Assembly: GCF_902829295.1 (NCBI RefSeq)
Contig: NZ_CADEPL010000019.1
Location: forward strand, 62,001-126,000
DNA from: Vogesella oryzae
GTDB taxonomy: Bacteria; Pseudomonadota; Gammaproteobacteria; Burkholderiales; Chromobacteriaceae
DNA: 64,000 bases
Reading direction: 5' to 3'
Part shown: in pieces, positions 45,035-64,000 of the stretch
How positions within the stretch are numbered: the stretch's first letter is position 1
Layout of the letters: each line of letters opens with the position of its first letter
Program-made: the position numbers and the translations under genes
The notes under the pieces: model-generated
The model's database searches: none
What the model saw: only the letters and a program-made list of their open reading frames with translations
What the model was told of the DNA's origin: nothing

Positions 45035-45041
45035 GATAAAG

Positions 45042-45637: not shown

Positions 45638-45670
45638 CTTCTCTCCCGCCCTGCCGCCACAGCGGCCAGA

Positions 45671-47193: not shown

Positions 47194-47229
47194 GCGGCCA
47201 ACCTGCCGCAGAAACGGAAGGTTGGCCGC
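47194..47229. repeat. Inverted pair of the dispersed 9-mer
   Basis: GCGGCCAAC at 47194-47202 and GTTGGCCGC at 47221-47229, with ACTGCGGCCAACCT and AGGTTGGCCGCAGT as extended 14-bp arms, between the GAF gene and the next GGDEF gene. Hairpin-capable. Confidence 0.85.
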
Positions 47230-47273
47230 AGTCCAGTCAAGCCGCCATGACCTCAACGGCTTGCCATCGAAGA

Positions 47274-48476: not shown

Positions 48477-48627
48477 CAGTCATCCCTCCTAGGACAAGCC
48501 AAGCATTATCAGTAGCTCCCCGCTCCCGATGTTTGCCCGAAGTCAACTAGCAGCCATTACAGGCAAAACAAAACCGGCGACACCACAAGTGCCGCCGGCC
48601 ACACATAAAACGCCCGTTTTAAAACGC

Positions 48628-49695: not shown

Positions 49696-49827
49696 CGTTT
49701 CGTTCTCGGGAAATAGGCCGCTACCGGCCATAAAAAAACCTGCCACGTACTACGGTGGCGGCAACGCCGGAACAACACCGGCATTGCCACATCAGACCGC
49801 GATACGGGGCAGGAATTCAGGCGCGAA

Positions 49828-51135
49828 TCAGGCCTTGGCCAGCGTCGGCTGGAACATCGGCACGACCAGGGTCTGGCCGCTCTTGGCATAACGCTGCATG
49901 GACAGGCCATCAATGCTGATTTCCGGCTGTGCACCGACAATCTGGTCGGCCAGTACTTTGCCGGAGCCGGCACACATGGTCCAGCCCAGCGTGCCGTGGC
50001 CGGTATTCAGCGACAGGTTGCCAAAACGGGTGCCACCGATGATAGGCGTGCCATCCGGCGTCATCGGGCGCAGGCCAGTCCAGAACTCGGCACGGGACAC
50101 GTCGCCCCCCTCCGGATAAAGATCGGTCACCACCATTTCCAGCGTGGCGCGGCGTTTCGGATTCAGGCTCAGGTCGAAGCCGGCCAGCTCGGCCATGCCG
50201 CCAACACGGATGCGATCATCGAAACGGGTAATGGCGATCTTGTAGGTCTCGTCCAGCACAGTGGATACCGGCGCGCCAGCAGCATTGGTGATCGGCACGG
50301 TCAGCGAGTAACCCTTGACCGGATAAACCGGAATATCGATACCCAGGGTTTTCACCATCTCGCGCGAATAGCTGCCGGTTGCCACTACGTAGTGGTCGGC
50401 GGTCAGCAATTCGCCTTCCACGCGCACGCCAGTCACCTTGTCGCCGTAAGTCTGGATACCGTCGATGCTCTTGCCCCACAGGAACTTGACGCCGTTGGCC
50501 GCACACATTTCGGCCAGACGGGTGGTGAACAGCTGGCAGTCACCGGTATCGTCGTTAGGCAGACGCAGACCGCCCTTGAGCTTGTGCTTGGTCTTGGCCA
50601 GCGCCGGTTCGATACGGGCACAGCCATCGGCGTCCAGTACCTGGTACTCCACGCCGCATTCCTTCAGCACTTCGATGTCCTTGCCCATCGCGTCAACTTG
50701 CTGCTGGCTGCGGAACAGCTGCAGCGTGCCGCCGTTGCGGCCTTCGAAGTTGATGCCGGTCTCGGCCTTCAGCTCGCGGATCTTGTCGCGGCTGTATTCG
50801 GCCAGACGCATCATGCGTCCCTTGTTGACGTTGTAAGCCTGGTAGTTGCAGTTGGCGAACATGCGCGCCATCCATTCCCACTGGTAGGTACTGCCATCAA
50901 CACGGATCGCCAGCGGAGCATGCTTCTGAAACAGCCACTTCAGTGCCTTCATCGGGATACCCGGCGCAGCCCACGGTGCGGCATAGCCCGGAGAGATCTG
51001 GCCGGCATTGCCGAAGCTGGTTTCCAGCGCCGGACCCGGCTGACGCTCGATCACGGTAACGTCCACCCCGGCCTTGGCCAGGTACCAAGCAGTGGAAATA
51101 CCCACTACACCACCACCCAATACGATGACTTTCAT
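49828..51135 (-). CDS. dadA: D-amino acid dehydrogenase small subunit
   Basis: FAD enzyme that deaminates D-alanine and other D-amino acids and feeds electrons to the quinone pool. 435 residues; N-terminal FAD motif [20 protein letters not shown], family blocks [22 protein letters not shown] and the C-terminal [19 protein letters not shown]. Transcribed divergently from an Lrp/AsnC-type regulator 169 bp away, as with the DadR/Lrp control of dad genes elsewhere. Confidence 0.95.
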
Positions 51136-51304
51136 GTGCTCCTCCAGATCCCTGCATGACGGTTTGAATCCGTCTGTTTGCTATACATTCGACCACCTGG
51201 ACACCGTCCAGTGAATTTCCGTAGTATATTGATTGAATGACAGTTTTTTTCACTTAGTTTAAATATTGACTAAGTGTATTTTCTCGAAAAATTGGTGGTT
51301 AACA

Positions 51305-51802
51305 GTGAAATCTCCAAACAAAAATATTGCACCGCAGCGCCAGCTGGATCGTATCGATCTGAAAATCCTGCACCACCTGCAAGCCAATGCCCGCATCTCG
51401 ATGACCGAGCTGGCCGAAACGGTAGGCCTGTCCACCACGCCATGCACCGAGCGGGTGCGTCGCCTGGAGCGCGACGGCGTGATCGAGGGCTACCATGCCC
51501 GTCTCAACCCGCAGGCACTGGGCGCCAGCCTGCTGGTATTTGTTGAGATCAAGTTGTCCGCCAAATCCGGCGACATCTTCGACGCCTTCCGCCGCGAGGT
51601 ACAAAAGCTGCCGGACGTGCTGGAATGCCACCTGGTCTCCGGCGAATACGATTACCTGCTCAAGGTGCGACTGCCGGACATGTCCATGTACCGCAAAGTG
51701 CTGGGCGACATCCTGCTCAAATTGCCGCAAGCCAATGAGTCCCGCAGCTACGTGGTGATGGAGGAGGTCAAGGAAACCGCCCTGCTGCCGCTGGGCAACT
51801 GA
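51305..51802 (+). CDS. Lrp/AsnC-family regulator, likely controller of dadA-alr
   Basis: 165 residues from a GTG at 51305 (VKSPNKNIAPQRQLDRIDLK), preceded by GGTGG. N-terminal winged helix-turn-helix (LDRIDLKILHHLQANARISM then VGLSTTPCTERVRRLERDGV) and C-terminal RAM ligand-binding domain (LNPQALGASLLVFVEIKL, HLVSGEYDYLLKVRLPDMS). Divergent to dadA, so it probably acts there in response to alanine or leucine. Confidence 0.9.
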   Translation: MKSPNKNIAPQRQLDRIDLKILHHLQANARISMTELAETVGLSTTPCTERVRRLERDGVIEGYHARLNPQALGASLLVFVEIKLSAKSGDIFDAFRREVQKLPDVLECHLVSGEYDYLLKVRLPDMSMYRKVLGDILLKLPQANESRSYVVMEEVKETALLPLGN

Positions 51803-51810
51803 CCCGGCCG

Positions 51811-51908
51811 GCGCACCAAATCGGCGCAAACCATTGTTTGCGCACCGAATTAGCGCCTTGCCAGCACCATCGTCGTACGTCATTTGGCAAAAACACCTAT
51901 TTGGTGCC
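51811..51908 (+). promoter_or_regulatory. Three NtrC-like enhancer sites
   Basis: Imperfect dyads of the GCACC-N5-GGTGC type: around 51812-51828 (GCACCAAATCGGCGC), 51839-51855 (GCACCGAATTAGCGC) and 51892-51908 (AACACCTATTTGGTGCC). They line up upstream of the sigma-54 promoter of amtB. Confidence 0.6.
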
Positions 51909-51920
51909 TTGCTGGCGGGC

Positions 51921-51936
51921 TGGCACCGTTATTGCT
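51921..51936 (+). promoter_or_regulatory. Sigma-54 (RpoN) promoter of amtB
   Basis: TGGCACCGTTATTGCT is a full match to TGGCAC-N5-TTGCT, 39 bp before the amtB start. Indicates nitrogen-limitation control through NtrC. Confidence 0.85.
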
Positions 51937-51975
51937 CATGAATGCCCCAATAACTCGCATAACAGGGACAAACTC

Positions 51976-53175
51976 ATGACCGCCATTACTCCTAATGACG
52001 TGCTGTTTCTATTACTAGGCGCAGTGATGATTCTGGCCATGCATGCCGGCTTTGCCTTTCTGGAGCTGGGCACGGTGCGCAAGAAGAATCAGGTCAATGC
52101 CCTGGTAAAAATCCTCACCGACTTTGCCGTTTCCGCCATCGCCTACTTCTTTGTCGGCTATAGCGTGGCCTATGGCGTAAATTTTTTTGGCGACGTGAAT
52201 CACATCAGCCAGTACAACGGCTATGAACTGGTGAAATTCTTCTTCCTGCTGACCTTCGCCGCCGCCATTCCGGCCATCGTTTCCGGCGGCATTGCCGAAC
52301 GCGCCAAGTTCCACCCGCAATCGGCGGCCACCTTCCTGCTGGTCGGGCTGGTCTATCCGTTTTTCGAAGGTATTGCCTGGAATGGCCACTTTGGCGTGCA
52401 GGACTGGCTTGCGGCCAACCTTGGCGCCCAGTTCCACGACTTTGCCGGCTCGGTGGTCGTCCATGCCGTCGGCGGCTGGATCGGCCTGGCTGCCGTGCTG
52501 CATCTGGGCGCCCGTCGCGGCCGTTACAACAAGGAAGGACGCATCGCCGCGCACCCGCCGTCCTCCATCCCCTTTCTGGCATTGGGAGCCTGGATTCTGA
52601 TCGTCGGCTGGTTCGGTTTTAACGTGATGAGCGCGCAGAAAATCGCCGGCATCTCCGGCCTGGTCGCCATCAACTCGCTGATGGCGATGGTCGGCGGCAC
52701 GCTGACGGCAATGTGGCTGGGCAAGAACGACCCGGGCTTCATCCACAACGGCCCGCTGGCCGGTCTGGTGGCGGTATGTGCCGGCTCCGACATCATGCAT
52801 CCTATCGGTGCCCTGGTCGTGGGCGGGGTCGCCGGCGCCATGTTCGTGTGGCTGTTCACCCTGACGCAGAACCGCTGGAAAATCGACGACGTGCTGGGCG
52901 TATGGCCGCTGCATGGCCTGTGCGGTACCTGGGGCGGCATCGCGGCCGGCATCTTCGGCCAGCATGCACTGGGCGGGGCCGGTGGTGTCAGCCTGGCTTC
53001 CCAGTTGCTGGGCTCGCTGGGTGGCATTGCTGTCGGCTTCGGTGGCGGTTATCTGGTCTATGGCCTGCTGAAGAAAACCGTGGGCATCCGCCTGAGCGAC
53101 GAGGAAGAATTCAACGGCGCCGACTTGTCGATCCACCAGATTACTGCCACGCCGGAGCGTGAAGCCAACTGGTAA
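51976..53175 (+). CDS. amtB: Ammonium transporter
   Basis: 399 residues with 11 predicted helices. The ATG at 51976 has AGGGA before it; a longer frame would run back through the promoter. Amt signatures: ALVKILTDFAVSAIAYFFVG, the Trp/His channel residues in VVHAVGGWIGLAAVLHLGAR (first pore His) and DDVLGVWPLHGLCGTWGGIA (second pore His). No glnK precedes it, though Amt genes are usually paired with a PII gene. Confidence 0.95.
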   Translation: MTAITPNDVLFLLLGAVMILAMHAGFAFLELGTVRKKNQVNALVKILTDFAVSAIAYFFVGYSVAYGVNFFGDVNHISQYNGYELVKFFFLLTFAAAIPAIVSGGIAERAKFHPQSAATFLLVGLVYPFFEGIAWNGHFGVQDWLAANLGAQFHDFAGSVVVHAVGGWIGLAAVLHLGARRGRYNKEGRIAAHPPSSIPFLALGAWILIVGWFGFNVMSAQKIAGISGLVAINSLMAMVGGTLTAMWLGKNDPGFIHNGPLAGLVAVCAGSDIMHPIGALVVGGVAGAMFVWLFTLTQNRWKIDDVLGVWPLHGLCGTWGGIAAGIFGQHALGGAGGVSLASQLLGSLGGIAVGFGGGYLVYGLLKKTVGIRLSDEEEFNGADLSIHQITATPEREANW

Positions 53176-53195
53176 CCGGTAGAACCTCGCCATGA

Positions 53196-53215
53196 GTTGG
53201 CCGCATGCGGCCAAC
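53196..53215. repeat. Back-to-back pair of the dispersed 9-mer
   Basis: GTTGGCCGC, AT, GCGGCCAAC: a 20-bp palindrome 21 bp after the amtB stop, in the opposite polarity to the pairs at 2204 and 62677. Confidence 0.85.
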
Positions 53216-53239
53216 TGCCGATTGTGCTAGCTGCAGCTA

Positions 53240-53286
53240 CCATGCAACAAGCCGCCCGGTGTGAGTCGCGGCGGCTTGTTGCATGG
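53240..53286. terminator. Long stem-loop between convergent genes
   Basis: Perfect 16-bp arms CCATGCAACAAGCCGC (53240-53255) and complement (53271-53286) with a 15-nt loop, 5 bp before the convergent protease stop. No T-run; probably a shared terminator. Confidence 0.6.
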
Positions 53287-53290
53287 AGGG

Positions 53291-54151
53291 TTAGGGTTGT
53301 GAGTGTGATTCGAAGCGATGGTCACAAGAACGGCAACGCTGCACAGCTTCCTGCGTCCAGTAGACATGAGTAACTGTCTTGCTGCCATTGCTGTTTTCGC
53401 GCTCATAGGTCGAACTACGGCCATTGGCAGACTGGCGGACCAGCGTCCCCCAACTCAGCGGATCGTCACTGATGTCGACCCCTGCCGCACTGGCACCACC
53501 GCTCGCTGCGGCTAACGTGGTTGTCGAGTCTTGGTGCGAATAGATAATGCCAAGCTCTTCGAAGTCATGGTCATTCGGCCGCGTACTCTGGTCGCTGCCA
53601 GCATTCACACCGGTATTCGAGAAGTAGTCCATACAGCTATTCTGTGAGCTGCCATCGGTGGATTGGTGATCCAGTCCGAAGGTATGCGCCACTTCCTGGC
53701 ACACCACATGCTGCCTTTCGTTTGGGTTGTTGTACGTCTTCAGATTGAAGTAGGAGTCGTTCATCTTGGCAGTACCCTGGGTAATATGCACCCCACCGGT
53801 AATGTTGATCGATGCCAACCCCAGCCAACCGTTGTAGCCGTATTTGCCATTGCAGACCTGGGTAGTGCCAGCCACCATAGAGCACGTACGTTTGCTGGAT
53901 CGCCCACCGACTAACGACACCAGCAATGGCGTGCTGGCCGAACTATTCCAGTCATTTGCAGCCTGGTTCAAATGAGTGATCCAGTCGACGCTAGTCATAT
54001 TGTTCCCCACCTTCAAGGTGAAAGAATAGGTAGTGCGTGCCCAGTGATAGCCGCCCCAGGAGTGGGTCGCCTCGCTCACGGCGGGTGCCAGCGCCAAGAG
54101 CACCCCCAGCAATACGGCCAGGCGCTGCGGTCTGTATCCGGTAATCAGCAT
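53291..54151 (-). CDS. Secreted zincin-type metalloprotease homologue with QExxH motif
   Basis: 286 residues with a Sec signal peptide (ending SEATHS region, about residue 28). The metzincin-like zinc site reads CQEVAHTFGLDHQ (about 147-159): an extended HExxHxxGxxH pattern in which the first His is Gln. The same QExxHtfGLdH form occurs in a recognisable group of bacterial secreted proteins, so it may be genuine rather than decay. Several Cys suggest periplasmic or extracellular disulfides; VQRCRSCDHRFESHSQP ends the protein. Substrate unknown. Confidence 0.65.
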   Translation of the reverse strand: MLITGYRPQRLAVLLGVLLALAPAVSEATHSWGGYHWARTTYSFTLKVGNNMTSVDWITHLNQAANDWNSSASTPLLVSLVGGRSSKRTCSMVAGTTQVCNGKYGYNGWLGLASINITGGVHITQGTAKMNDSYFNLKTYNNPNERQHVVCQEVAHTFGLDHQSTDGSSQNSCMDYFSNTGVNAGSDQSTRPNDHDFEELGIIYSHQDSTTTLAAASGGASAAGVDISDDPLSWGTLVRQSANGRSSTYERENSNGSKTVTHVYWTQEAVQRCRSCDHRFESHSQP

Positions 54152-54351
54152 GGTGGTTTCCTTTCAACTCGGCGAGACCGGCAAGCTGCCCGCCGTAATG
54201 ATTGATTGCCCCTTACTGGATACCTGCCGGCAATGCCGGCGCATAGCCGATTGTTTTTCTTCGTTATAGCGCGCCAGCAGCCAGTCCTGCGCCACAAAAA
54301 ACATGGCCCGCAGTGCGGGCCATGGTCTGCTGGAAATACAGCGCAGCGTGA

Positions 54352-56367
54352 TCAGTAGTCGTACTCCGGCGATTGCTTGTAATAGTCGAAGCAGCGTTGC
54401 AGCTGGGCGCGCTTGCCGGCATCCAGCGCCACGAACTCCAGCCCGTAATTGCAACTATCCTTGCCGTCGGTCTTGCGCAGGATACGGGCAGCGACAGCCA
54501 ATGGCTCCTGTTCGTCGTAGACCTCGCGCTCTTCATGCGGAATGCGGATCAGCAGATGTACACGCTCGCCCTCCCGTACCTGCAATTGGGCCGGCACACG
54601 CAGCTGCATGCCACTCATGCTGAAGTCGGCGGTGGTTGCCAGCTGGCTGCAGTGGCCATCATCCACAGTAACCAGCAGGTTGTGCGCCACCCGCGGCTCG
54701 CGACGCAGCTCGTTGGCCGCAGGCTGCGGCTTGGGCGCATCCTCGAAGTGGAAGTTCTGCATGATCTGCCGCAGCCGTTCGGCGACCTGGAACAGATCGG
54801 CACTCACCACGCTGGTGGTACGGATCTCGGTGGTATTCATTTCCAGCGTGTGCAGCAGCTCCTGCAAACAGGCTTCCAGATGGCGCAGTTTGCTCATCTG
54901 TTGCTGGCTGACGGTAGCAATCTCACCGGCCAGCGCATAGTTGTTGTCGATGTCCTGCATGATCAGGCCAAACACCTGATTGGCACCATCGGCCTTGTCC
55001 ATGCTCAGGCTGGTGCGCTGGATGATGGCTTCCATCGCGGCCGCATTATCGGCAATCAACCGCGCCAGGTTGCTGATAATGCCATTGATATTGCCAGTGG
55101 CCTGCCCGGCACGTTGCGCCAGACTGCGGACTTCGTCAGCCACGACCGCGAAGCCACGGCCTGCCTCGCCGGCGCGCGCCGCCTCGATGGCTGCGTTCAG
55201 CGCCAGCAGATTGGTCTGCTCGGTAATGCCGGCGATGGTGTCGGTAATGGCCTGGATCTGGCGGCTGGCCTCACCCAGTGCCTGCATCTGTCTTTCCGCC
55301 TGCTGCACTTCACTGACGGCACGCTGCATTTCCTCGATATTGTCGCGTATCGCCGTCACGCCTTGCTCGGCGCGTTGCTTGGCCTGCTCGGCACGATCGC
55401 TCACCGCCTGTGACAACTCCAGTACCGAGCTGGTGGTCACCGCCAGCTCGGCAGTGGCGCTATGCACTTCCACCGAGCGCTCCTCCTGCTGGCGTGCAGT
55501 ACCGGTGATGCGCTGCGAAATCTGGGAAATCTGGTAAGAAGACTGGGCGATTTGCCGCGACTCGACATCGATGCCACGCATATGGCTCGCCAGCGCACTG
55601 ACCATGCCCTGCATGCTGCCCAGCAGACTTCCTGCCACGCCGGAGCGGTTGTCGATACGGGTATCCAGCCGGCCTTCGGCCACATGGCGAGTCACCTGTA
55701 CGGCATAGGCAGGTTCATTACCCAGCATGGCAATGAGTTTGCGATAAAGATAGGCACCACTGGCCAGCAACAGCAGCAGCGAGGCGGCGGCACCGCCGGT
55801 ACTGACCCAGAACATCAGTCCCAGGTGTAATTGCTCATCCTGCCCGGCGGCTGCCGTCTGCTGGTCGAGCTGGGCCGCCAGTTTTTCCAGTTTGTCGCCC
55901 AGCGCATCGGTCTGGGCATCGAAACCGCCCGGCTCCTTCATCACGACATTGCCAGCTTCCCTCCCCTGCTGCACATACAACTGGACCATCTTTTCGCCCG
56001 TGTCGTACAGCTTGCCGACAAGGCTATCCGCTTCGGCCACGGCATCGCGATATTCCGGCGCCAAGGCTGCCAGGTGGGTCAGCTCTGTCTTGGCCGCATC
56101 GCGCTCGGCCCTGGCTTCGTTGAATTCGGCCGCCCCGACGGCTGCCGAATCGGTAAGAAACTGCTGAATCTGCACTACATGGTAACGGACATTCTTGAAG
56201 GCCTCGGAGGCCTGCTGCAGACGTTCCTTCTCCCGTGCCGAAACATCAAGCGAGTAATTGCCATACCAGACCACGGCAATGCCGATCAGCATGATCAGCG
56301 ATACCGCCGTTGCCAGTGTCAGCAACAAGCGCTTCAGGGAAGTAGAGGAACTCAGGGGGGCAGACAT
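54352..56367 (-). CDS. Methyl-accepting chemotaxis protein fused to a PilZ domain
   Basis: 671 residues. Transmembrane helices near 12-30 and 190-215 enclose a four-helix periplasmic sensor; then HAMP-like and MCP signalling domains with the hairpin tip [21 protein letters not shown]. The C-terminal 120 residues are a PilZ domain: RREPR (RxxxR) and DFSMSG (DxSxxG) are the c-di-GMP-binding motifs, both intact. A direct c-di-GMP input to chemotaxis or twitching is implied. The tail ends SPEYDY rather than a CheR-binding pentapeptide of the NWETF type. Confidence 0.88.
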
Positions 56368-56495
56368 AGGCGTGTTCCGTTGACATTGTTGTACTCAATG
56401 ATACAAACAACGCATTTCCGTTGTTAATTGCGAATTACACATTGCAATTAACATTAAACAATACCGCAACCGCCAGTAGATACCAGCCAGGTTTT

Positions 56496-56669
56496 TCACG
56501 CCTCCGGCTCGTTGTTGCGCCGGGCAACCTCTTCGCCACGCATGCCACGCTTGAAACCGCGCACCGCCGCACCCAGGTCTTCGCCCGCGGTACGCAACTT
56601 GCTGCCACCAAACACCAGCAAAACCACCAGCAACACGATCAGCCAGTGCGCCAGACTGAATTCACCCAT
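56496..56669 (-). CDS. tatA: TatA/TatE twin-arginine translocase subunit
   Basis: 57 residues: [20 protein letters not shown] then [20 protein letters not shown], a textbook TatA with one N-terminal membrane helix, the FG hinge (20-21) and amphipathic helix. AAGGAAA precedes the ATG. No tatB or tatC follows, so this is an orphan copy. It lies 67 bp downstream of a HiPIP gene whose product carries a twin-arginine signal, an apt pairing. Confidence 0.9.
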
Positions 56670-56687
56670 TTCTGTTTCCTTGCATCA

Positions 56688-56722
56688 CAAAAAAACCACG
56701 GAGGCCATGCGGCCAACCGTGG
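56688..56722 (-). terminator. Hairpin containing a dispersed 9-mer
   Basis: CCACGG (56696-56701) pairs with CCGTGG (56717-56722); the loop holds GCGGCCAAC at 56709-56717, and the A-run before it is the minus-strand U-tract. Terminates or attenuates between the HiPIP gene and tatA. Confidence 0.6.
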
Positions 56723-56736
56723 CATCAGCCTGCCAA

Positions 56737-57045
56737 TCAGGCTTTCTTGGCGTAAACGTTACACCAGCCCTTGGCGGATACCAGCTTGCCGCCCAGCATC
56801 GGACAGGCGCCAAACGCATCGCCAGCCTTGCCCTGGAAGAACTGGCAATTGCTACAGGACTGGCCGGCCACAAATTTCGGGTGCTTGGCCTTGTCAATCT
56901 TGCCAGCATCGGCCACATAGCCCAGCGCTGCAGCAGCCGGGTCTTTCTCGTCAACCTTGGCCGGTGCAGCCAGCGCGGTACGGGCAACGGCCAGGGCAGA
57001 AACCACCCCTACACTTTTAATCAGAAAACTGCGGCGAGATTGCAT
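56737..57045 (-). CDS. High-potential iron-sulfur protein (HiPIP)
   Basis: 102 residues. Tat signal SRRSFLIKS followed by a hydrophobic stretch and AxA cleavage (TALAAPA). The mature part holds four Cys in HiPIP spacing: CSNCQFF, FGACPML, KGWCNVY, which ligate one 4Fe-4S cluster. Periplasmic electron carrier exported folded, which fits the neighbouring tatA. Confidence 0.92.
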   Translation of the reverse strand: MQSRRSFLIKSVGVVSALAVARTALAAPAKVDEKDPAAAALGYVADAGKIDKAKHPKFVAGQSCSNCQFFQGKAGDAFGACPMLGGKLVSAKGWCNVYAKKA

Positions 57046-57316
57046 GTTCGACTCCTGTAGGTACCGGCAACGCCGGTGATTGCTGAAAAAGACGGTACAG
57101 CCGGCAGCGCTGCTGCCGGAACATCACCCATCGCAGCCGGCATACGGCAGCGGGCGAGGCTGCCAATGTTGCACAGCAGCGCAAAAAAACCTTTGGCCAA
57201 TCTCAAGCTTTTTACAGAATCGCAGCACACGGCACCATACACCCAAAGTCGTAGGGGCTTGCAGCCCGCGCCGGCATGGCGATAATCGAAAGCTGATTTT
57301 CACCCACGAGGCCGTC

Positions 57317-57799
57317 ATGAGCTTGCAATCGGTACGAGCGTTCTTTGCAGAACGCCAACTGGATATCCCCATCATCGAACTGGACACCAGCACCGCTACC
57401 GTGGCGCTGGCGGCCGAAGCTCACGGCGTGGAACCGGGCCGTATCGCCAAAACCCTGGCTTTCCGCCTTGCCGACGGCCGTGTGGTACTGCTGGTGGCAC
57501 GCGGCGATGCCCGCATCGACAACCGCAAGTTCAAGGATGCCTTCGGCAAGGGCCGCATGCTGCCGGCGGAAGAAGTCCACCAGCTGACCGGCCATCCGGT
57601 TGGCGGGGTCTGCCCGTTTGGTCTGGCGCAAGCGCTGCCGGTCTTTGTCGACAGTTCGCTGCAGATTTACGACGAAGTACTGCCGGCAGCGGGGGATGTA
57701 CACACCGCCGTGCGCATCAGCCCTACCCTGCTGGCTGAAGTGGTAGCCGGCGAGTGGGTGGATGTCTGCCAAGAAGCCGCAACACTCGCCAGCGTGTGA
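57317..57799 (+). CDS. YbaK/ProX-type aminoacyl-tRNA deacylase
   Basis: 160 residues from MSLQSVRAFFAERQLDIPII, GAGG 6 nt upstream. Trans-editing fold of the YbaK/EbsC family: RIAKTLAFRLADGRVVLLVA with the key Lys, DARIDNRKFKDAFG, and TGHPVGGVCPFGL with the GxxPxG-type loop. Hydrolyses mischarged tRNA (for example Cys- or Ala-tRNA-Pro). The long upstream extension of the frame has no support. Confidence 0.88.
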   Translation: MSLQSVRAFFAERQLDIPIIELDTSTATVALAAEAHGVEPGRIAKTLAFRLADGRVVLLVARGDARIDNRKFKDAFGKGRMLPAEEVHQLTGHPVGGVCPFGLAQALPVFVDSSLQIYDEVLPAAGDVHTAVRISPTLLAEVVAGEWVDVCQEAATLASV

Positions 57800-57838
57800 A
57801 AAACGGGCCGATCACAGCCCTTCCCTCCGCACCAATGT

Positions 57839-59536
57839 CTAGGCAATCGGCGCTCTTGCCAGCCGGCCAAGCGGCTGGGGTGCTGCTGCCGAATGCCCGG
57901 TTGGTGACGGCAGCGTAAAGAAGGCGATGGCTGCCTTCAGCTCGTGCGCCATCTGCTCCAGCTGGCCGGCCGATACCGCAGTCTGCGTGGCCGCGGCACT
58001 GGTTTCCTCGGTCATCTGCGCCACCTGCTCCACATTGCCGGCAATGCTGGCTCCTGCCGCCTGCTGCTGCGCCAGTGCCACCGACACCGACTGGATGGCC
58101 TGATCGATGCGGCCAACGTTGCCGCTGATACCCGCCACTGCCGCCTGCGCCTGCTGCGTTTGCACCAGCCCGGTTTCCATCTGCGCCACGGTTTGATGAA
58201 TACCGCCGACCACCTGCTGACTGCTGGTCAGCATTTCGGCAATGATGCCGCTGATCTGGCTGGTGGACTGCGCGGTACGTTCCGACAACTTGCGCACCTC
58301 GTCCGCGACCACGGCAAAGCCGCGCCCTGCCTCGCCGGCCCGTGCCGCCTCGATGGCGGCATTCAGTGCCAGCAGATTGGTCTGTTCCGCTACGTCGCGG
58401 ATCACTTCCACCACGCCGGAAATCTGCTGCGACTTGCTGCCCAGCAGATTGGCCTGTTGCTGCGAATCGCGCACCAGCTGGCTTACCTGCTGGATGGTCT
58501 GCAAAGTACCGGCAATGATCTGTTCGCCCTCGCCAGCCAGCTTGCCGGCGCTATCGGCATCGCGCGCCACGTCACGGGTATTGTCGCTGACCGAGGCAAT
58601 ACTGACCGACAGCTGCTCCACCGAGGCGGACATCGCGGCTGCCGAGCGATTCTGCTCTTCGGCCGATACCGCCACCTGCTCCGAGGATGCGGCCAACTCG
58701 CTGGCATTGACCGACAAACGGGCAATGACCTGTTCCAGATTCTGCACCAGCCGGCACAGTGCGTGCTGCATCGCCGCCATCGACGCCACCACGCTGCAGT
58801 CATCCCCCTGGCGCACCGGCAGCGGCTGCCCCAGATCACCTGCGGCGATACGCCGTGCCAGCAGCACCACGTCCGCCGGCTCGCCGCCCAGCTGCCGCAG
58901 CAGGTTGCGGATGATGTACCAGCCCATGCCGCCGCCCAACAGCAACCCCAGCGTCATCAGCAGCACCGAAAGCTGCGCACTGTGCTGCGCCGCCGCCTCG
59001 GCGGTTGCATATTGTTCCGCCGCCACCCGCAGCTGCAGTGCGATCAGGGCGGCAATGCGGCCGGATACCGGGTCGATGGCCGGGTACAACTTGCGGTCAT
59101 TAAATTGCTGCAAGCCGGCTTGATCGTCCGCCTGCGCTAGCTGCTGCAACTGGCCAACTGCGGCATTGGCCAGTTGCATCGCCTGCTCGGTCTCGGTGAC
59201 CAGTTTCTGTTCTTCATCGGTCAGCAAAGTACTGCGATAAGCCTGCCATTGCTGGTCTATGCTGCCGCGGGCCGCGCCAAGGCTTTGCAGGAAACTGTCG
59301 CGGCTGATGGCACCGGCGCGCAGCTTGTGCGCGGCATCGACAATGCTCACCGCGTAGCCGTCCGCCACTTGCTTGAGCTGCTGCAGGGGCACCACGCGAT
59401 CGTTATAGGTACTGGAATAGTCGGCGAGGATGCGCTGCTGTACATACATGCCGTAGCCGCCCAGTACGGCGGCAATCAATAGCAATAGTGACAACAACAG
59501 GCCAAGGCGCTGGCCGATGGTAAGTGAGTGGGTCAT
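57839..59536 (-). CDS. Methyl-accepting chemotaxis protein
   Basis: About 565 residues from [24 protein letters not shown] lies 9 nt upstream. Four-helix-bundle periplasmic domain between two membrane helices (about 10-32 and 190-212), HAMP, then the signalling domain with tip [22 protein letters not shown]-terminus ends [10 protein letters not shown] without a CheR pentapeptide. The ligand is not predictable. Confidence 0.9.
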
Positions 59537-59885
59537 GGAGCTTGCTCCGTTGCGGTGGGATGGGATAACGGAAACTGCAATGCATGCCACTTCTAGTTAA
59601 ACGCCATAACATGACATGTCAAAGACATGTCTGCACCCTAAGTAATTGCACCTAGACCCGGTTTATTCCGGCCAAAAGCATGTGCCACCATTTCTCAGCC
59701 CGCTGGTGGCAGCAAATTGTCTATACCGCCAGTGGCAAGCCATTTCCACGGCATAAAATGGCGGCCAACGTCGCCAGCAGGTTGGCCGCAGCTCGGTGAC
59801 CGATGCAATATTTATTCCGTAAGCATTGGCGATATAAACAAAAAACCCGCACACGGCGGGTTTCCATACGAGCGGCCAACCGCAA
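59537..59885. other. Intergenic region with inverted 9-mer pair and gmhA terminator
   Basis: About 350 bp. 9-mers at 59761 (plus), 59781 (minus) and 59872 (plus); the first two form a hairpin-capable pair. AAACCCGC / GCGGGTTT (59843-59863) with an A-run to its left is the minus-strand terminator of gmhA. The left 200 bp should hold the MCP promoter. No gene seen. Confidence 0.6.
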
Positions 59886-60473
59886 TCAGGCATAGTTCTG
59901 CGGGAACAGCGCGCGCTCGACCGACTCGATCAGGATGTGGATCACCTTGATGTGCAACTCCTGCACCCGGTCGGCATACTGGCCACCCGGGGTGCACACG
60001 TCGATGTCCGCCAGCTGGCCGATCACCGAGCCGGGACGGCCGGTCAGCGCCACCACCACCATGCCCATTTCCTTGGCGGCCTTCACCGCCGCCAGCACGT
60101 TCTTGCTGCTGCCGCTGGTGCTGATCGCCAGCAGCACATCACCGGCGCCGGCATGCGCTTCCAGGTAACGCGAGAAGATCGCCTCGTAGCCATAGTCGTT
60201 ACCGACGCAGCTGATATGGCTCGGGTCGCTGATACTGGCCGCCGGCAACGCGCGGCGGTCGTTGCGGTAGCGACCGGACAGCTCCTCGGCAAAATGCATG
60301 GCATCGCACATCGACCCGCCATTACCGCAGCTGAACACCCGCTTGCCCTGCTGATACGCCGTCACCAGCGCATCGCCGGCGGCGTCGATGGCAGCCAGCG
60401 CTTGCGGGTTGGACAGCAGCGCATCCAGCGCGCTGCGTGCTTCGGTCAGGGTGGCAACGATATGCGGTTTCAT
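59886..60473 (-). CDS. gmhA: Sedoheptulose-7-phosphate isomerase
   Basis: First step of ADP-heptose synthesis for lipopolysaccharide core. 195 residues from MKPHIVATLTEARSALDALL; AAGG upstream. SIS fold with CGNGGSMCDAMHFAEELSGR, SISDPSHISCVGNDYG, AISTSGSSKNV and the late Glu/His pair QELHIKVIHILIE (active-site His). The motif GGSHCDAMHF of E. coli GmhA reads GGSMCDAMHF here. The paralogue DiaA is the alternative, but the sequence fits GmhA better. Confidence 0.88.
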   Translation of the reverse strand: MKPHIVATLTEARSALDALLSNPQALAAIDAAGDALVTAYQQGKRVFSCGNGGSMCDAMHFAEELSGRYRNDRRALPAASISDPSHISCVGNDYGYEAIFSRYLEAHAGAGDVLLAISTSGSSKNVLAAVKAAKEMGMVVVALTGRPGSVIGQLADIDVCTPGGQYADRVQELHIKVIHILIESVERALFPQNYA

Positions 60474-60477
60474 GATG

Positions 60478-61318
60478 TCAGCCTTGTTGGTCTTGATGGG
60501 CGGGCATTGTACCCGCCTCGCGCGGCCAGCGCAGCAGCAGATCCTGCCGCAAGCCGACCGCCAGCTGACCGCCGGTCTGCGGTGGCGGAGCCGCGCCCAG
60601 CTCGCGCGCGCCCAGCAGCAGCTGCCACGGCGCATCGTCGCCAGCCACCGTCACCTGCCAGCCATCGGCCTGCGGCGCCGTCGCCATCACCGGCCGCAGC
60701 GGTTGCCCGGCCCCGAGCATGAATGCCTGCGGCGGGATGGCGTAATGCTCGAACACATTACGGAAGCCGACAAAACGTGCCACCCAGCTGCTGGCCGGCC
60801 GCGCCAGAATGTCCGCCGGCGTGCCCTGCTGCACGATGCGGCCATGCTGCAGGATGGCGACCCGCTGCGCCAGGGTGAAAGCTTCGTGCCGATCGTGCGT
60901 CACCAGCAGCGCCGGCACCTGCAAGCCGGCCAGATGCCGCGCCACATCGGCCAGCAGCTGCTGCTTGAGATCGGTATCCAGGCTGGAGAACGGCTCGTCC
61001 AGCAGCAGCAACTGCGGCCGGCACACCAGCGCCCGCGCCAGCGCCACCCGCTGCCGCTCGCCGCCGGACAGGGTGTGGCAGGCGGCACTTCCGCGCCCGG
61101 CCAGACCTACCGCCGCCAGCATCGCCTCGGCCTGCTGCCGTGCGGTGCGGCGCGGGGTGCCGCGCTCGATCAAGCCGAACGCCACGTTGGCCGCGGCATC
61201 CAGATGCGGAAACAGCGCGTGATCCTGGAACATCATCGCCAGCTGTCGCCGCTCCGGCGGCAGTGCCAGCAGGTCGCCGCCATGCAGGCTTACCCGCCTG
61301 CATATCGTCGCCGGCTTC
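60478..61318 (-). pseudogene. ABC transporter ATP-binding protein, 5' truncated (ThiQ/PotA-like)
   Basis: Q-loop MMFQDHALFPHL, signature LSGGERQRVALARAL, Walker B LLLLDEPFSSLD and H-loop VTHDRH are intact, followed by a C-terminal accessory domain. There is no Walker A: recognisable homology begins only at about RVSLHGGDLLALPPERRQ, just inside the junction near 61319. The protein cannot bind ATP normally. The reading frame is open to 61395, but those first residues derive from the fused neighbour. Ends 5 bp before gmhA. Confidence 0.75.
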
Positions 61319-61337
61319 AGTTGTGTATAAGAGCCGG
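61319..61337. other. Tn5 mosaic-end-like 19-mer at a gene-fusion junction
   Basis: AGTTGTGTATAAGAGCCGG matches the 19-bp Tn5 mosaic end at 16 positions. It lies exactly between a 3'-truncated hydrolase gene and a 5'-truncated ABC ATPase gene. Could mark a transposon-related deletion or a library/assembly artefact from tagmentation. Confidence 0.5.
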
Positions 61338-61876
61338 GCCCCCACCTTGCCGTTACCCAGCCGCTGCAGGAAATACATGGCCTCGCGGGAGACATCGGCG
61401 GCCATCGCCGCGCTCAGACTGCTAAACATCTCGCGCGCCTTGTCCTCGTCCGCCGGTGTACCGCCCAGTGGCGACAGATAATCCGGCGCCAGTACCCAGT
61501 AACCCGCCAGTGCCAGCCGCCGGGCCACATCGCGGATATGCGGATTCAGGCCGCGGTTCTCGTGCACCAACACGACCCCCGGCATCGATTTACCGGCTGC
61601 CAGCGGCCGCACCAGATAGCCGGATAGCGGCACACCTTCGCGGTTGCCGAAGCTGACATCCTCCGCCTTGAGCCGGCTGTCGTCGGGCGCCGTCTCGCCG
61701 GCCTGCGCGTAATTGTTTTCCAGCAGCGGCAGCACCGCATAGGCCGCCGCCGCACTCCCCAGCAAGCGCGTCAGCCGGCCGATGAACTCGCGCCGTGACA
61801 GCGGCTGGTGGGTATAGCAGTCGTACAGATTGATGACCTCCTGCGACAACTCAGGCGGCGGACATTTCGGCTTCAT
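61337..61876 (-). pseudogene. Dienelactone hydrolase family protein, 3' truncated
   Basis: The first 180 residues survive: a Tat signal (SRREFIGRLTRLLGSAAAAY), then the alpha/beta hydrolase core with VVLVHENRGLNPHIRDVARRL and APDYLSPLGGTPADEDKAR. Similarity stops after NGKVGA, right before the nucleophile elbow (normally GxCxG) would appear, so the catalytic triad is missing. The frame then reads into the truncated ABC gene in the wrong phase. Full-length relatives are about 290 residues. Confidence 0.8.
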
Positions 61877-62160
61877 AGGCAGCTCCTATGCAGACAGACA
61901 CGTTGGCCGCATCCGGCCGGGCGGATGCGCAATGCAAGCGGCAGCGGCCGCACCGTTTTATAGGAAACCGTGACGGCAAAACGCAATGACAATTGCCTGT
62001 TGCGCGCCGCCACCCCCGCGTTGCCGGTATCAGCAAGGCAGTACGGCGGCGGCGCGCCCGGCAAGCCGGCACCGGAACTCGCCGGACAGACCATCGGTCT
62101 TACCGGAGTAGCGAATTGCTCGCTGCCTGCCTGACACCAGCAACTCACAGGGGACACATC
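61877..62160. other. Divergent intergenic region
   Basis: 284 bp between the divergent hydrolase and glycine-zipper lipoprotein genes, with one 9-mer at 61902 (minus). Promoters for both genes expected; none clearly matched. Confidence 0.4.
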
Positions 62161-62370
62161 ATGACACCCTTCCTGACGCGCACTACCCTCGTACTGGCGG
62201 CCATTGCCAGCCTGTCCGGCTGCGCCGGCATGACCCAGCGCCAGCAGAATGCCGCCATCGGCGCCGCGGTTGGCGGCGTTGCCGGCTCGGTACTGACCAA
62301 TGGCAGCACCGCCGGTACCATTGGCGGCGCCGCCATCGGCGGCATCATCGGCAATGGCGGCGTGAAATAA
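62161..62370 (+). CDS. Glycine-zipper lipoprotein (OsmB/YMGG-like)
   Basis: 69 residues; AGGGG 8 nt before the ATG. Lipobox LSGC (Cys21), then a glycine-zipper stretch GAAVGGVAGSVLT...GGAAIGGIIGNGG. Small outer-membrane lipoproteins of this type are often induced by osmotic or envelope stress. Confidence 0.8.
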   Translation: MTPFLTRTTLVLAAIASLSGCAGMTQRQQNAAIGAAVGGVAGSVLTNGSTAGTIGGAAIGGIIGNGGVK

Positions 62371-62527
62371 CCCCCGCCGCCGCCCGCAAACCGCCGCCCA
62401 CCTATGCGTGGCGGCGGTTTTTGCTTGCCGGCAACAGGCATGGAGAAAGCCGTGCCAGCCGCCATGCAGCATCTATACTGGCGGTAAGCTGCGACGCGAC
62501 GCCGCGGCTGCGTCAAGGAGCATCGCC

Positions 62528-62656
62528 ATGAGCAAGTCCAGACATAGCACCAAGGAAGCCAAGAAGCCGGCCATGCACACGGCCAAGGAAAAACGGGCCG
62601 CCAAGCACATGAAGAAACATGCCGCAGAAATGCCGCCCATCATCGTTCCACACTAA
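62528..62656 (+). CDS. Small basic protein
   Basis: 42 residues, nearly all Lys, His, Ala and Glu (MSKSRHSTKEAKKPAMHTAK then EKRAAKHMKKHAAEMPPIIV). AAGGAG 7 nt upstream of the ATG. Cytoplasmic; could bind nucleic acid. Similar tiny KHA-rich proteins exist in beta-proteobacteria without known function. Confidence 0.6.
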   Translation: MSKSRHSTKEAKKPAMHTAKEKRAAKHMKKHAAEMPPIIVPH

Positions 62657-62673
62657 ACGCCAGCAGCATGAAC

Positions 62674-62700
62674 AATGCGGCCAACGTTGGCCGCATTTTT
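62674..62700 (+). terminator. Terminator built from two dispersed 9-mers
   Basis: AATGCGGCCAAC followed by its exact complement (62674-62697), a 24-bp perfect palindrome, then a T-run. Lies 17 bp after the small basic protein gene. Confidence 0.75.
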
Positions 62701-62795
62701 GTTTGCCCAGCCGCAAAGCGATGCGGCCAGCCGGCACACCACCGCCAGCAAGCAGCGCCGCAGCGACTACCATCAAGGGTAAGGAGGGACACACC

Positions 62796-63023
62796 ATGAA
62801 ATGCTGGACTTACGACACCCGCTACGGTCCGTTCGAGATCGTGCCGCTGGATGGCAGCTACCACATCATGCACGAGGGCGAGGCGCTGGGCGCCTACCCC
62901 AGCCCGGAAGCCGCCGCCAAAGCCCTGGCCGCCGGCGACACCAGCTGGCCACCATTCGGCAACCCGCAGGATCTAGGCATCCCCGCCGACCTGCAGCAAT
63001 GGCATGCCCGGCAGCTGGTTTGA
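62796..63023 (+). CDS. Small hypothetical protein
   Basis: 75 residues from MKCWTYDTRYGPFEIVPLDG, AAGGAGGG upstream. Pattern Y-H-I-M-H-E-G-E-ALGAYPSPEAAAKALAAG with an aromatic C-terminus looks like a small conserved cytoplasmic family found in Neisseriales-like and Pseudomonas genomes. Function unknown. Confidence 0.65.
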   Translation: MKCWTYDTRYGPFEIVPLDGSYHIMHEGEALGAYPSPEAAAKALAAGDTSWPPFGNPQDLGIPADLQQWHARQLV

Positions 63024-63051
63024 ACTAGCGCACACACAGACCCGAGAAGGC

Positions 63052-63097
63052 AAAAAGGTTGGCCGCAAGTCCACACAGGCTTGCGGCCAACCTTTTT
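63052..63097. terminator. 9-mer hairpin with A- and T-runs
   Basis: 18-bp perfect arms AAAAAGGTTGGCCGCAAG (63052-63069) and complement (63080-63097) with a 10-nt loop. Works as a terminator on either strand and contains one 9-mer in each arm. Confidence 0.8.
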
Positions 63098-63390
63098 CTC
63101 CCCAAGCACCGCAACCAAACCATGCGCCGCCGAACCGACTTAGCCCACACCCGTTGGCGCGAGCCGGGCGAAACGGTGCGCCCCGGGTGTTAAGACGCTG
63201 CCTGAGCCGCGCGACGTTAGCGCGCGGTGAATCAGCGGCGCCCGGGGCGTATCGTTTGGCACAGGGTTGTGAGCAGCCGTCGGGTCGCCTTTCTTTGGGT
63301 ACTTTCTTTTGGCGAGGCAAAAGAAAGTATCCCGCCGCCGCGCGGAAAGCGGCACTTAAACAAACCGCGTAGCGGCACTACAAACAAAAC

Positions 63391-63430
63391 AAGGTTGGCC
63401 GCAATGCCATCTGGGCATGCGGCCAACCTT
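63391..63430. repeat. Second 9-mer hairpin near the right edge
   Basis: AAGGTTGGCCGCA (63391-63403) and its complement (63418-63430) enclose a 14-nt loop, itself partly paired (TGCC/GGCA). Confidence 0.8.
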
Positions 63431-63483
63431 GGTGATTGCGCGGTAACTGTTGGGTTTCATTTCATTCAACCCAACCTACGAGC

Positions 63484-64000
63484 TCAAGACCCTAACAAAC
63501 CTGCTGCCTTTGCTTTACCCTCACCCCAAAACGCAGATTCATCGTAATAATTTTTGTGATTCAAATCCATGAGCAGATCTTCATCAATATTTCTCAATAA
63601 GCTATATTTCTCAATCAATGGCTTAAACTTCTCCGCTCCAACCCCAGTCAAACCGTTATAAAAAAGTAAAACCAACTCATAAGAGGAGAGTTGTGCACGA
63701 AAAAGGCTAGTATAGAATCGCTTATCCACACCACTCAAACTTGTTGATTTATCTACAAAATCAACAACATAATACATGTTTCTAAAATAATGCTGCAATT
63801 CACTAGAGAATTTTTTAGTCAGTAAAGTTGCAGATTCCACACAAATCCCACGAGTATCATTTATTTTTTTCGCACCACCATCAGCATGATCACCTAGAAT
63901 TTTTTCATATAGAGATCTGAAATGACGATAGATATGATAAAAAGCGGGCTTTCCAGCCACCGTTACCTTTTTATCTTTAAAATAGTGCGTCGAAGAAACA
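63484..64000 (-). CDS. Putative phage abortive infection protein (AbiC-like), 5' partial
   Basis: The visible part matches the C-terminal region of the putAbiC family: HIYRHFRSLYEKILG, LQHYFRNMYYVVDFVDK, FRAQLSSYELVLLFYNGLTG and KFKPLIEKYSLLRNIDEDLL. A GTG at 63958-63960 is a possible start, but the frame stays open to the window edge and family members are longer with N-terminal membrane helices, so the gene is probably cut off. Markedly AT-rich, a sign of transfer. No repeats of the 9-mer inside. Confidence 0.65.
   Translation of the reverse strand, partial: VSSTHYFKDKKVTVAGKPAFYHIYRHFRSLYEKILGDHADGGAKKINDTRGICVESATLLTKKFSSELQHYFRNMYYVVDFVDKSTSLSGVDKRFYTSLFRAQLSSYELVLLFYNGLTGVGAEKFKPLIEKYSLLRNIDEDLLMDLNHKNYYDESAFWGEGKAKAAGLLGS

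What the first reader, a model, noticed from the sequence alone, without database searches (positions are those of the whole stretch)
62674..63430. Inverted 9-mer pairs double as transcription terminators
At 62674, 63052 and 63391, and also 2204, 47194, 53196 and 59761, two copies face each other to form stems, some with T-runs. The paired copies occur in both polarities (head-to-head and tail-to-tail) and with different loop lengths, so the motif rather than one hairpin is being reused. This is how DUS pairs are deployed in Neisseria.
Basis: partly seen in the sequence, partly recalled or inferred. Interest (0 to 1): 0.6.

Follow-up and report, generated by a model that had tools for sequence, protein, structure and literature searches.

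The report
Vogesella DNA-uptake-like tag, paired at gene ends
A short DNA word repeated thousands of times in Vogesella and, with changed endings, in several related genera looks like a self-recognition tag for taking up DNA, and facing pairs of it form hairpins at gene ends, where some probably also stop transcription.

Summary
In detail: all seven sites are facing pairs of GTTGGCCGC. The motif is genome-wide, with 2,273 exact GTTGGCCGCA in 3.4 Mb (reversed control 13). In a 756-kb sample facing neighbours within 40 bp outnumber same-strand ones 84 to 8; 66 lie in tandem or convergent gaps, 1 in a divergent gap, 13 inside called genes, 4 at sample edges. As terminators they are only partly supported: 17 of 66 gene-end pairs have four or more T's nearby (controls 27 of 279), as do 4 of the 7 listed sites. 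Neisseria favours one pair polarity; here both occur.

The larger find: the genus is Vogesella and the motif looks like a DNA uptake sequence with lineage dialects. CAAGGTTGGCCG is followed by CA in 13 of 13 Vogesella genomes, AA in 8 genomes, AG in 2; 38 of 61 family genomes have none at that level. All 23 bearers match a homologue of ComP, the Neisseria receptor, but so do 35 of the 38 others, mostly more weakly. The words lack the CTG core of known Neisseriaceae DUS. Uptake is untested. New variant of a known kind.

The parts
62676..62700 (+). zero-gap facing pair TGCGGCCAACGTTGGCCGCA followed by T5, about 20 nt after a 42-aa ORF (62528-62656)
   Evidence: z -4.3; no exact pair at this gene end in 5 of 5 congener hits, four of which align only over 95 of 129 nt
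63052..63097 (+). facing pair with 16-nt loop inside A5/T5: a bidirectional terminator-shaped hairpin after ORF 62796-63023
   Evidence: z -8.3; pair kept after the orthologous gene in all 6 congeners (of 12 searched) that had a hit to that gene; two pairs with changes on both sides, weak covariation
63390..63431 (+). facing pair with 16-nt loop, no T-run; similar pair with similar flanks seen in two congeners (L265, L267)
   Evidence: (z -7.0)
2201..2224 (+). zero-gap facing pair between convergent genes, no T-run; by eye, an ordinary terminator-shaped hairpin for the minus gene lies beside it
   Evidence: z -4.0
47190..47233 (-). facing pair with 18-nt loop followed by T4 on the minus strand, after gene 47274-48476(-)
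   Evidence: z -9.1
53195..53216 (+). facing pair GTTGGCCGCATGCGGCCAAC between convergent genes, no T-run
   Evidence: z -2.4
59761..59789 (-). facing pair with T4 nearby on the minus strand, after gene 59886-60473(-)
   Evidence: z -0.5, not better than shuffles
34406..34489 (.). wider facing pair (gap about 67), after gene 31270-34392(+)
37698..37764 (.). wider facing pair (gap 49), after gene 37328-37687(+)
1..64000 (.). 65 copies of GTTGGCCGC (26 on +, 39 on -) spread over the window, about one per kb
   Evidence: genome-wide counts
24003..32109 (.). longest motif-free stretch of the window (8.1 kb, G+C 0.49): serine recombinase, phage-replication-like protein and AAA ATPase beside tRNA genes; a probable acquired island that lacks the motif

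Best explanation
The 9-mer is the core of a DNA-uptake-sequence-like tag, consensus CAAGGTTGGCCGCA in Vogesella, present in thousands of copies so that free DNA of the same genus is recognised and taken up by type IV pili through a ComP-type minor pilin. Related lineages use the same stem of the word with other endings (CAAGGTTGGCCGAA and CAAGGTTGGCCGAGC), that is, dialects. Because the tag is tolerated in untranslated space between gene ends, copies gather there. Two facing copies make a strong hairpin, so pairs were kept next to stop codons, where a minority with a T-run probably act as intrinsic terminators and the rest may only trim or protect mRNA 3' ends. SHOWN by computation: abundance, dialects, pairing, gene-end bias, the ComP homologue, spacing more even than random, scarcity in low-G+C and island-like DNA. 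INFERRED: DNA uptake, recognition by ComP, and termination in the cell.
For: Abundance and lineage restriction: GTTGGCCGCA 1,871-2,895 copies in 13 of 13 genomes of the genus, at most 58 in 48 of 48 other family genomes, and at most 52 in the other 296 of 300 order genomes. Dialects: GTTGGCCGAA 183-2,168 in 8 genomes and GTTGGCCGAG 1,590-1,940 in 2; Vogesella genomes have 8-34 and 14-40 of these. Upstream flank C-A-A-G shared by all three. The dialect-agnostic 11-mer AAGGTTGGCCG is raised only in Vogesella (4 of 4 sampled) and G117 among 300 order genomes. The 69 stretches matching a paired 28-base pattern in 84,980 species came from Vogesella (57), Pseudogulbenkiania or Paludibacterium (7) and records titled Neisseriaceae bacterium or Beta proteobacterium (5). 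Receptor: a 141-aa prepilin-like protein whose best PDB hits are named ComP (2m3k E 1.5e-6, 5hz7 6.8e-6); in an AG genome the ortholog's top three hits are 2nba, 2m3k and 5hz7, E 2e-13 to 9e-12 (that 2nba is a ComP is recalled); matches in 23 of 23 dialect genomes; the 13 CA rows are one ComP clade (support 100/99). Pairing and gene ends in three dialects: opposite/same-strand neighbours 84/8 (own), 24/1 (congeners), 39/0 (AG), 16/1 (AA); pairs in divergent gaps 1 of 67, 1 of 20, 5 of 35, 0 of 14, each below expectation (p 3e-9, 0.039, 0.012, 0.029). T-runs of 4+ after 45 of 129 gene-end pairs against 76 of 774 controls, p = 5e-12 (convergent pairs had two chances there, and a per-side recount stays above control in all four sets, p 0.005 or less). 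Spacing more even than random (variance/mean 0.62 against 0.84, sd 0.06, in 60 simulations) and no significant strand bias (349:305). 7 of 8 2-kb bins under 50% G+C lack the motif, against 4-6% of 270 bins above 60%.
Against: No uptake, binding or RNA 3'-end experiment was available. ComP-like proteins also match in 35 of 38 family genomes without a dialect (weaker as a rule, and some of those hits may be other pilins), so the receptor alone does not predict the motif. The Vogesella protein scores below Pfam's cut-off for ComP_DUS (18.6 against 27.3 bits). ComEC was not found in 2 of 61 family genomes, and both are Vogesella drafts (G348, G349). The word lacks the CTG core of Neisseriaceae DUS. 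Dialect and genus nearly coincide, so ComP-dialect agreement is not independent of ancestry, and the tree has long branches. Most pairs here lack a T-run (49 of 66). Low motif count in low-G+C DNA is confounded with composition. The 62674 hairpin is not conserved. In the window's own genome only 17% of 9-mers have AAG before them, so the long consensus is loose there.
Confidence: 0.77

Rival explanations
1. The motif is only a family of intrinsic terminators: a favoured stem sequence amplified at gene ends, without any role in DNA uptake.
For: Pairs concentrate near stop codons and are T-enriched downstream; one hairpin is kept in six congeners.
Against: 501 of 772 copies lie inside called genes and about 168 of 772 are in facing pairs (84 pairs); 49 of 66 gene-end pairs have no T-run of 4 or more; 142 of 168 terminator-like hairpins at gene ends lack the motif; lineage dialects and even spacing are not explained.
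Confidence: 0.08
2. The motif is a binding or modification site unrelated to uptake (nucleoid protein, Chi-like or segregation signal, orphan methyltransferase site), which secondarily pairs.
For: Thousands of copies, spaced more evenly than random, would also suit a chromosome-organising site; GGCC is a common methylase core (recalled).
Against: No significant strand bias relative to G+C skew (349:305; 86:107; 68:75), which Chi or KOPS-type signals show (recalled); the word is not a palindrome; lineage-specific endings together with a ComP homologue fit uptake better. A nucleoid-protein or methylase site was not tested directly.
Confidence: 0.12
3. The pairs are a REP- or MITE-like mobile hairpin spread by a transposase.
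For: Inverted pairs in intergenic space, many copies.
Against: Information stops at about 14 bp and loops vary in length; most copies are unpaired and intragenic; both polarities and three dialects.
Confidence: 0.03

Closest known systems
DNA uptake sequence (DUS) dialects of Neisseriaceae (Frye 2013, PMC3630211, passages only)
   Same: Thousands of copies, dialects tied to lineage, a ComP receptor homologue, inverted pairs linked to terminators
   Different: No CTG core (stated as common to all eight described dialects, PMC12061091 passage); different genera; both pair polarities; uptake untested. The same paper reports no obvious DUS in five genomes including Lutiella nitroferrum 2002 and Pseudogulbenkiania sp. 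NH8B; its Table S1D of over-represented words could not be read here
Uptake signal sequence (USS) of Pasteurellaceae, AAGTGCGGT core
   Same: Short hyper-abundant word, partly in terminator hairpins (PMC1852404 passages)
   Different: Unrelated core sequence; gammaproteobacteria; different proposed receptor (ComN/PpdA, PMC12616744, title and start of abstract in the listing)
USS/DUS-pair intrinsic terminators (Kingsford 2007, PMC1852404, passages)
   Same: Facing copies at gene ends form terminator hairpins
   Different: About 55% of the Neisseria terminators they counted contain the tag and one polarity dominates; here 26 of 168 (15%) by my own rule and both polarities

Membership tests
Neisseriaceae DUS | Hyper-abundant word of about 10-12 bases in the genome | tested here: met
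   2,273 GTTGGCCGCA, reversed control 13
Neisseriaceae DUS | Invariant CTG core | tested here: not met
   Neither CTG nor CAG within CAAGGTTGGCCGCA, -AA or -AG(C) (consensus); core stated in PMC12061091 and PMC3630211
Neisseriaceae DUS | Lineage-restricted dialects | tested here: met
   CA 13 of 13 Vogesella, AA 8 genomes, AG 2 genomes, none at that level in 38 of 61
Neisseriaceae DUS | ComP receptor encoded | tested here: inconclusive
   Homologue by sequence: best PDB hits named ComP, match in 23 of 23 dialect genomes but also in 35 of 38 others; the Vogesella protein is below the Pfam cut-off; binding untested
Neisseriaceae DUS | Motif raises DNA uptake and transformation | not testable with these tools
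   needs an assay; nothing on it among the papers listed in searches (lists capped, papers not opened except PMC3630211, PMC2397512 and PMC12061091 passages)
Neisseriaceae DUS | Inverted pairs with one dominant polarity | tested here: not met
   49 against 35 (own), 14 against 10 (congeners), 17 against 22 (AG), 7 against 9 (AA); bias in Neisseria per PMC1852404
Neisseriaceae DUS | Absent from recently acquired DNA | tested here: inconclusive
   8.1-kb recombinase island is motif-free; low-G+C bins mostly empty, but G+C is a confounder
Pasteurellaceae USS | GCGGT core (AAGTGCGGT) | tested here: not met
   not contained in the consensus; USS words from the passages
Intrinsic (Rho-independent) terminators | G+C-rich hairpin just after a stop codon | tested here: met
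   tandem pairs: median 17 nt after the stop, 37 of 47 nearer the stop than the next start
Intrinsic (Rho-independent) terminators | T-tract right after the stem | tested here: inconclusive
   17 of 66 pairs against 27 of 279 controls in the own genome; 17 of 30 against 15 of 160 in the AG genome; per side 19 of 85 against 9.2% (own)
Intrinsic (Rho-independent) terminators | RNA 3' ends at the site | not testable with these tools
   no RNA data
Chi/KOPS-type oriented signals | Strand bias along the replichore | tested here: not met
   349:305 (p 0.09), 86:107 (p 0.15), 68:75 (p 0.62) relative to local G+C skew

The most novel reading that the evidence does not exclude
Chromobacteriaceae carry their own uptake-sequence system, distinct from the CTG-core DUS and the Pasteurellaceae USS: a shared CAAGGTTGGCCG stem with at least three lineage dialects (CA, AA, AG) read by orthologues of the ComP minor pilin, with facing pairs of the tag used as gene-end hairpins in all three dialects.
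Probability: 0.75. Interest if true: 0.72.

Novelty: new variant of a known kind. Interest (0 to 1): 0.66.

Why it matters
The papers seen here describe genomic uptake tags in two bacterial families, Neisseriaceae and Pasteurellaceae; I recall no third system of this kind. A further set of dialects with a different core, in relatives of Neisseria that have ComP homologues, would let one ask how the tag and its receptor change together: the conserved stem and variable ending can be compared with ComP sequences across 23 genomes, including named Vogesella species. It would also show that using paired tags at gene ends arises with a different core, and it gives a practical hint (add the motif) for transforming these bacteria.

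Tried and rejected
Rejected or weak: REP/MITE element (information ends at about 14 bp); oriented Chi/KOPS-like signal (no significant strand bias). Rfam at gathering threshold found only tRNAs in the window. A covariation test of the 63052 hairpin gave two pairs with changes on both sides, but 25 of 500 shuffles reach the observed score and 13 of 18 pairs never vary: weak. ComEC and DprA occur in 59 of 61 and 61 of 61 family genomes and so do not discriminate; the two genomes without ComEC are Vogesella drafts. The Pfam ComP_DUS model hits up to five pilin-like places per genome, so its 61 of 61 was not used as evidence. A word ACCAACTGA in one genus sample looks like tRNA sequence (from recall, not checked). 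A poly-C excess comes mostly from the start of one contig and was dropped. Samples of the genera without a dialect were small (25-60 kb each), so a different abundant word there cannot be excluded; small samples can miss: those of g140 (20 kb) and g141 (17 kb) did not show the AA word that whole-genome counts then found. Gene calls are my own dicodon-score caller, not a published one, and it missed at least one low-G+C gene of the window, so context counts are approximate. In one search convergent pairs were given two chances for a T-run and controls one; one search recounts per side. In one search collapsing close pairs itself lowers the variance; simulates this. ComP tree: L119 (G339) gave no parsable protein and was left out, and a first tree had only 19 rows because minus-strand loci were not parsed. 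No structure was predicted: the ComP loci came from the genome search, which the predictor's rule does not list, and tblastn found comP in none of the 69 loci from the DNA search.

Full report
WHAT WAS CLAIMED. Inverted pairs of a 9-mer at seven places in the window were said to double as transcription terminators, as DUS pairs do in Neisseria.

THE SITES ARE REAL. The 9-mer is GTTGGCCGC (complement GCGGCCAAC), with 65 copies in the window, 26 on plus and 39 on minus. All seven sites hold facing copies, and they are the seven facing pairs with a gap of 40 bp or less in the window. Both polarities occur: four GCGGCCAAC..GTTGGCCGC and three GTTGGCCGC..GCGGCCAAC. Six of seven fold better than shuffles; 59761 does not. 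Four of seven have a run of at least four T's after the stem on the transcribed strand (62674, 63052, 47194, 59761); 2204, 53196 and 63391 do not.

THE MOTIF IS GENOME-WIDE. The window's genome (G000, 3.415 Mb, 58 contigs) holds 2,273 GTTGGCCGCA against 13 of the reversed word and 1,141 GGTTGGCCGCA against 0. In 756 kb that I sampled (window plus stretches fetched) there are 772 copies of the 9-mer against 18 reversed: 501 in called genes (0.77 per kb) and 271 between them (2.67 per kb). With close pairs collapsed and bins under 57% G+C left out, copies are spaced more evenly than random: variance/mean 0.62 in 2-kb bins against 0.84 (sd 0.06, minimum 0.69 of 60) for random placement treated the same way. 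There is no significant strand bias relative to local G+C skew (349:305, p 0.09).

PAIRS AND GENE ENDS. Within 40 bp, neighbours face each other 84 times and point the same way 8 times (p = 4e-17); random redistribution within coding and intergenic space gives 27.7 facing pairs on average. Of the 84, 47 lie in tandem gaps, 19 in convergent gaps, 1 in a divergent gap, 13 inside called genes and 4 at sample edges, that is 16.2 per 10 kb of convergent, 8.5 of tandem and 0.36 of divergent intergenic space (1 divergent of 67, p = 3e-9). In tandem gaps the pair begins a median of 17 nt after the stop, and 37 of 47 are nearer the stop than the next start. The commonest arrangement is a zero-gap palindrome (28 of 84).

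ARE THEY TERMINATORS? Partly. A T-run of four or more within 14 nt follows 17 of 66 gene-end pairs, against 27 of 279 control windows (p = 0.0015); the corresponding figures are 6 of 19 against 21 of 140 in congeners (p = 0.098), 17 of 30 against 15 of 160 in the AG-dialect genome and 5 of 14 against 13 of 195 in the AA-dialect genome. That count gave convergent pairs two chances. Per side, the own genome has 14 of 47 single-direction pairs and 5 of 38 convergent sides (control 9.2%), congeners 2 of 12 and 6 of 14 (10.9%), AG 5 of 12 and 21 of 36 (10.6%), AA 3 of 9 and 3 of 10 (5.8%). Of 483 gene ends with room in the own sample, 168 have a terminator-like hairpin by my rule, and 26 of these hold the motif (22 as a pair); divergent upstream regions, the control, give 4 of 117. 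In congeners it is 8 of 76 (control hairpins 3 of 40), in AG 28 of 108 (1 of 59), in AA 6 of 60 (0 of 63). So motif pairs supply a minority of terminator-like hairpins, and most pairs here lack a T-run. In Neisseria about 55% of the terminators counted hold the tag and one polarity dominates (PMC1852404, passages); here polarity is 49 to 35.

CONSERVATION AT THE FINDING. Six of 12 congeners had a hit to the small gene before 63052, and in all six a facing pair follows it. The base pair beside the motif is G-C in two, C-G in four and unpaired in one of the seven sequences, and one inner pair is A-T, G-C or unpaired; with seven sequences the covariation is weak (25 of 500 shuffles as high). The T-run is kept only in the own genome and G350. 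The third hairpin (63391) has a similar pair with similar flanks in two congeners. The hairpin at 62674 is not conserved: of five congener hits to its gene, G350 has a single exact motif copy followed by an ordinary terminator-shaped hairpin and four, aligned over only 95 of 129 nt, show no motif in the next 110 nt.

THE ORGANISM AND THE DIALECTS. NCBI places Vogesella in Chromobacteriaceae, Neisseriales. The species of the window was not determined. GTTGGCCGCA has 1,871-2,895 copies in 13 of 13 genomes of this genus and at most 58 in 48 of 48 other genomes of the family. A k-mer screen of small samples of nine other genera turned up related words, then counted in all 61 family genomes: GTTGGCCGAA in G330 579, G331 2,168, G332 1,245, G339 1,851, G340 1,104, G341 183, G342 893 and G117 1,368; GTTGGCCGAG in G328 1,940 and G329 1,590. 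Thirty-eight genomes have none of the three at such levels: 19 in g2, 9 in g3, 4 in g135 and 6 in g139. Intermediate counts exist: G334 has 62 AA and 92 AG, G337 45 and 85, G330 also 165 AG, G328 and G329 77 and 78 AA. The flank C-A-A-G precedes the word in all three dialects, giving CAAGGTTGGCCG + CA, AA or AG(C); in the own genome this flank is loose (AAG before 17% of 9-mers). The 11-mer AAGGTTGGCCG is raised only in Vogesella (4 of 4 sampled, 549-1,052) and G117 (232) among 300 genomes of the order; the other 295 have at most 9. A paired 28-base pattern covering the three endings matched 69 stretches among 84,980 species: 57 in four Vogesella species, 7 in Pseudogulbenkiania or Paludibacterium, 5 in records titled Neisseriaceae bacterium or Beta proteobacterium, one of which has the contig length of G331 (the tool may leave out the window's own genome). 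Pairing replicates in the other dialects: facing to same-strand neighbours 39 to 0 (AG) and 16 to 1 (AA), 24 to 1 in congeners; divergent gaps hold 5 of 35, 0 of 14 and 1 of 20.

THE CANDIDATE RECEPTOR. G000:C22:14321-14743 encodes a 141-aa prepilin-like protein. Its best PDB sequence matches are entries named ComP (2m3k E 1.5e-6; 5hz7 6.8e-6; their neisserial source is recalled); Pfam ComP_DUS is its best Pfam match but below cut-off (18.6 against 27.3 bits). The ortholog in AG genome G328 has 2nba, 2m3k and 5hz7 as its top three hits (E 2e-13, 2.8e-12, 9.3e-12; 2nba as a ComP is recalled). Orthologues match in 23 of 23 dialect genomes and, more weakly as a rule, in 35 of 38 others, where some hits may be other pilins. 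In a 29-row ComP tree the 13 CA rows are one clade (100/99), the two AG rows one (91/79), and AA needs three changes; the tool warns of long branches. Dialect and genus nearly coincide, so this is agreement, not proof. The gene just upstream encodes a GspH-family (FimT-like) pilin. DprA (61 of 61) and ComEC (59 of 61, missing from two Vogesella drafts) are present across the family.

ISLANDS. The longest motif-free stretch of the window, 24003-32109 (8.1 kb, G+C 0.49), starts beside tRNA-Ala and tRNA-Glu genes and holds a serine recombinase, a phage-replication-like protein (just below cut-off) and an AAA ATPase with G+C 0.36. Of 2-kb bins, 7 of 8 under 50% G+C lack the motif, against 4-6% of 270 above 60%. 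Neisserial DUS are reported absent from recently acquired genes (PMC2397512 abstract), though here G+C is a confounder.

READING. Best supported: a DNA-uptake-sequence-like tag with dialects, read by a ComP-type minor pilin, whose facing pairs make hairpins at gene ends and, where a T-run follows, probably terminators. It works like DUS; it is not filed as a member of the Neisseriaceae DUS because the CTG core said to be common to all eight described dialects (PMC12061091 passage) is absent. Frye 2013 (PMC3630211 passages) found no obvious DUS in five genomes, among them Lutiella nitroferrum 2002 (I recall this as the strain now called Pseudogulbenkiania ferrooxidans 2002, which the pair pattern hit) and Pseudogulbenkiania sp. 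NH8B; its supplementary word list could not be read, so the AA word may already be printed there. Among the papers listed by full-text searches I saw none on uptake sequences in Vogesella or Chromobacteriaceae. These lists were capped (for instance 20 of 594, 15 of 193, 15 of 344), cover open-licence papers only, and apart from PMC3630211, PMC12061091, PMC12616744, PMC1852404 and PMC2397512 (passages) the papers were not opened.

CHECK. 

Noticed in passing
window 24003-32109: Probable acquired island beside tRNA-Ala/tRNA-Glu: serine recombinase (24429-26090-), phage CRI-like replication protein (26318-27460-, just below cut-off) and an AAA ATPase (27921-29441+) followed by a protein without Pfam match (29419-30543+), the last two at 36% G+C; possibly a defence pair (guess).
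   Followed up: partly
window 63484-63960 (-): Gene with a Pfam match to putAbiC (putative phage abortive infection protein) at the window's right end.
   Followed up: no
window 44801-45034 and 24297-24485: tRNA-Ala(ggc)/tRNA-Glu(ttc) genes occur twice in the window, 20 kb apart, with one extra tRNA-Ala.
   Followed up: no
window 63299-63331: An inverted repeat TACTTTCTTTTG..CAAAAGAAAGTA beside the finding; 4 half-elements in the 756-kb sample.
   Followed up: partly
G117 (labelled genus g3): Carries 1,368 copies of the AA dialect although 9 of 9 other genomes labelled with the same genus have none; a gain, a loss in the others, or a mislabelled genome.
   Followed up: no
Vogesella samples: Sub-flavours within the CA dialect: some species often have AAG before the motif (G343 61%, G345 56%, G027 46%), others including the window's genome seldom do (17% or less in own, G344, G346, G347, G349, G350), and the final A is near-strict in G350 (43 of 44) but not in the own genome (508 of 772).
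   Followed up: partly
L092/L090 (G000:C22): The comP homologue lies directly downstream of a GspH-family (FimT-like) minor pilin gene.
   Followed up: no
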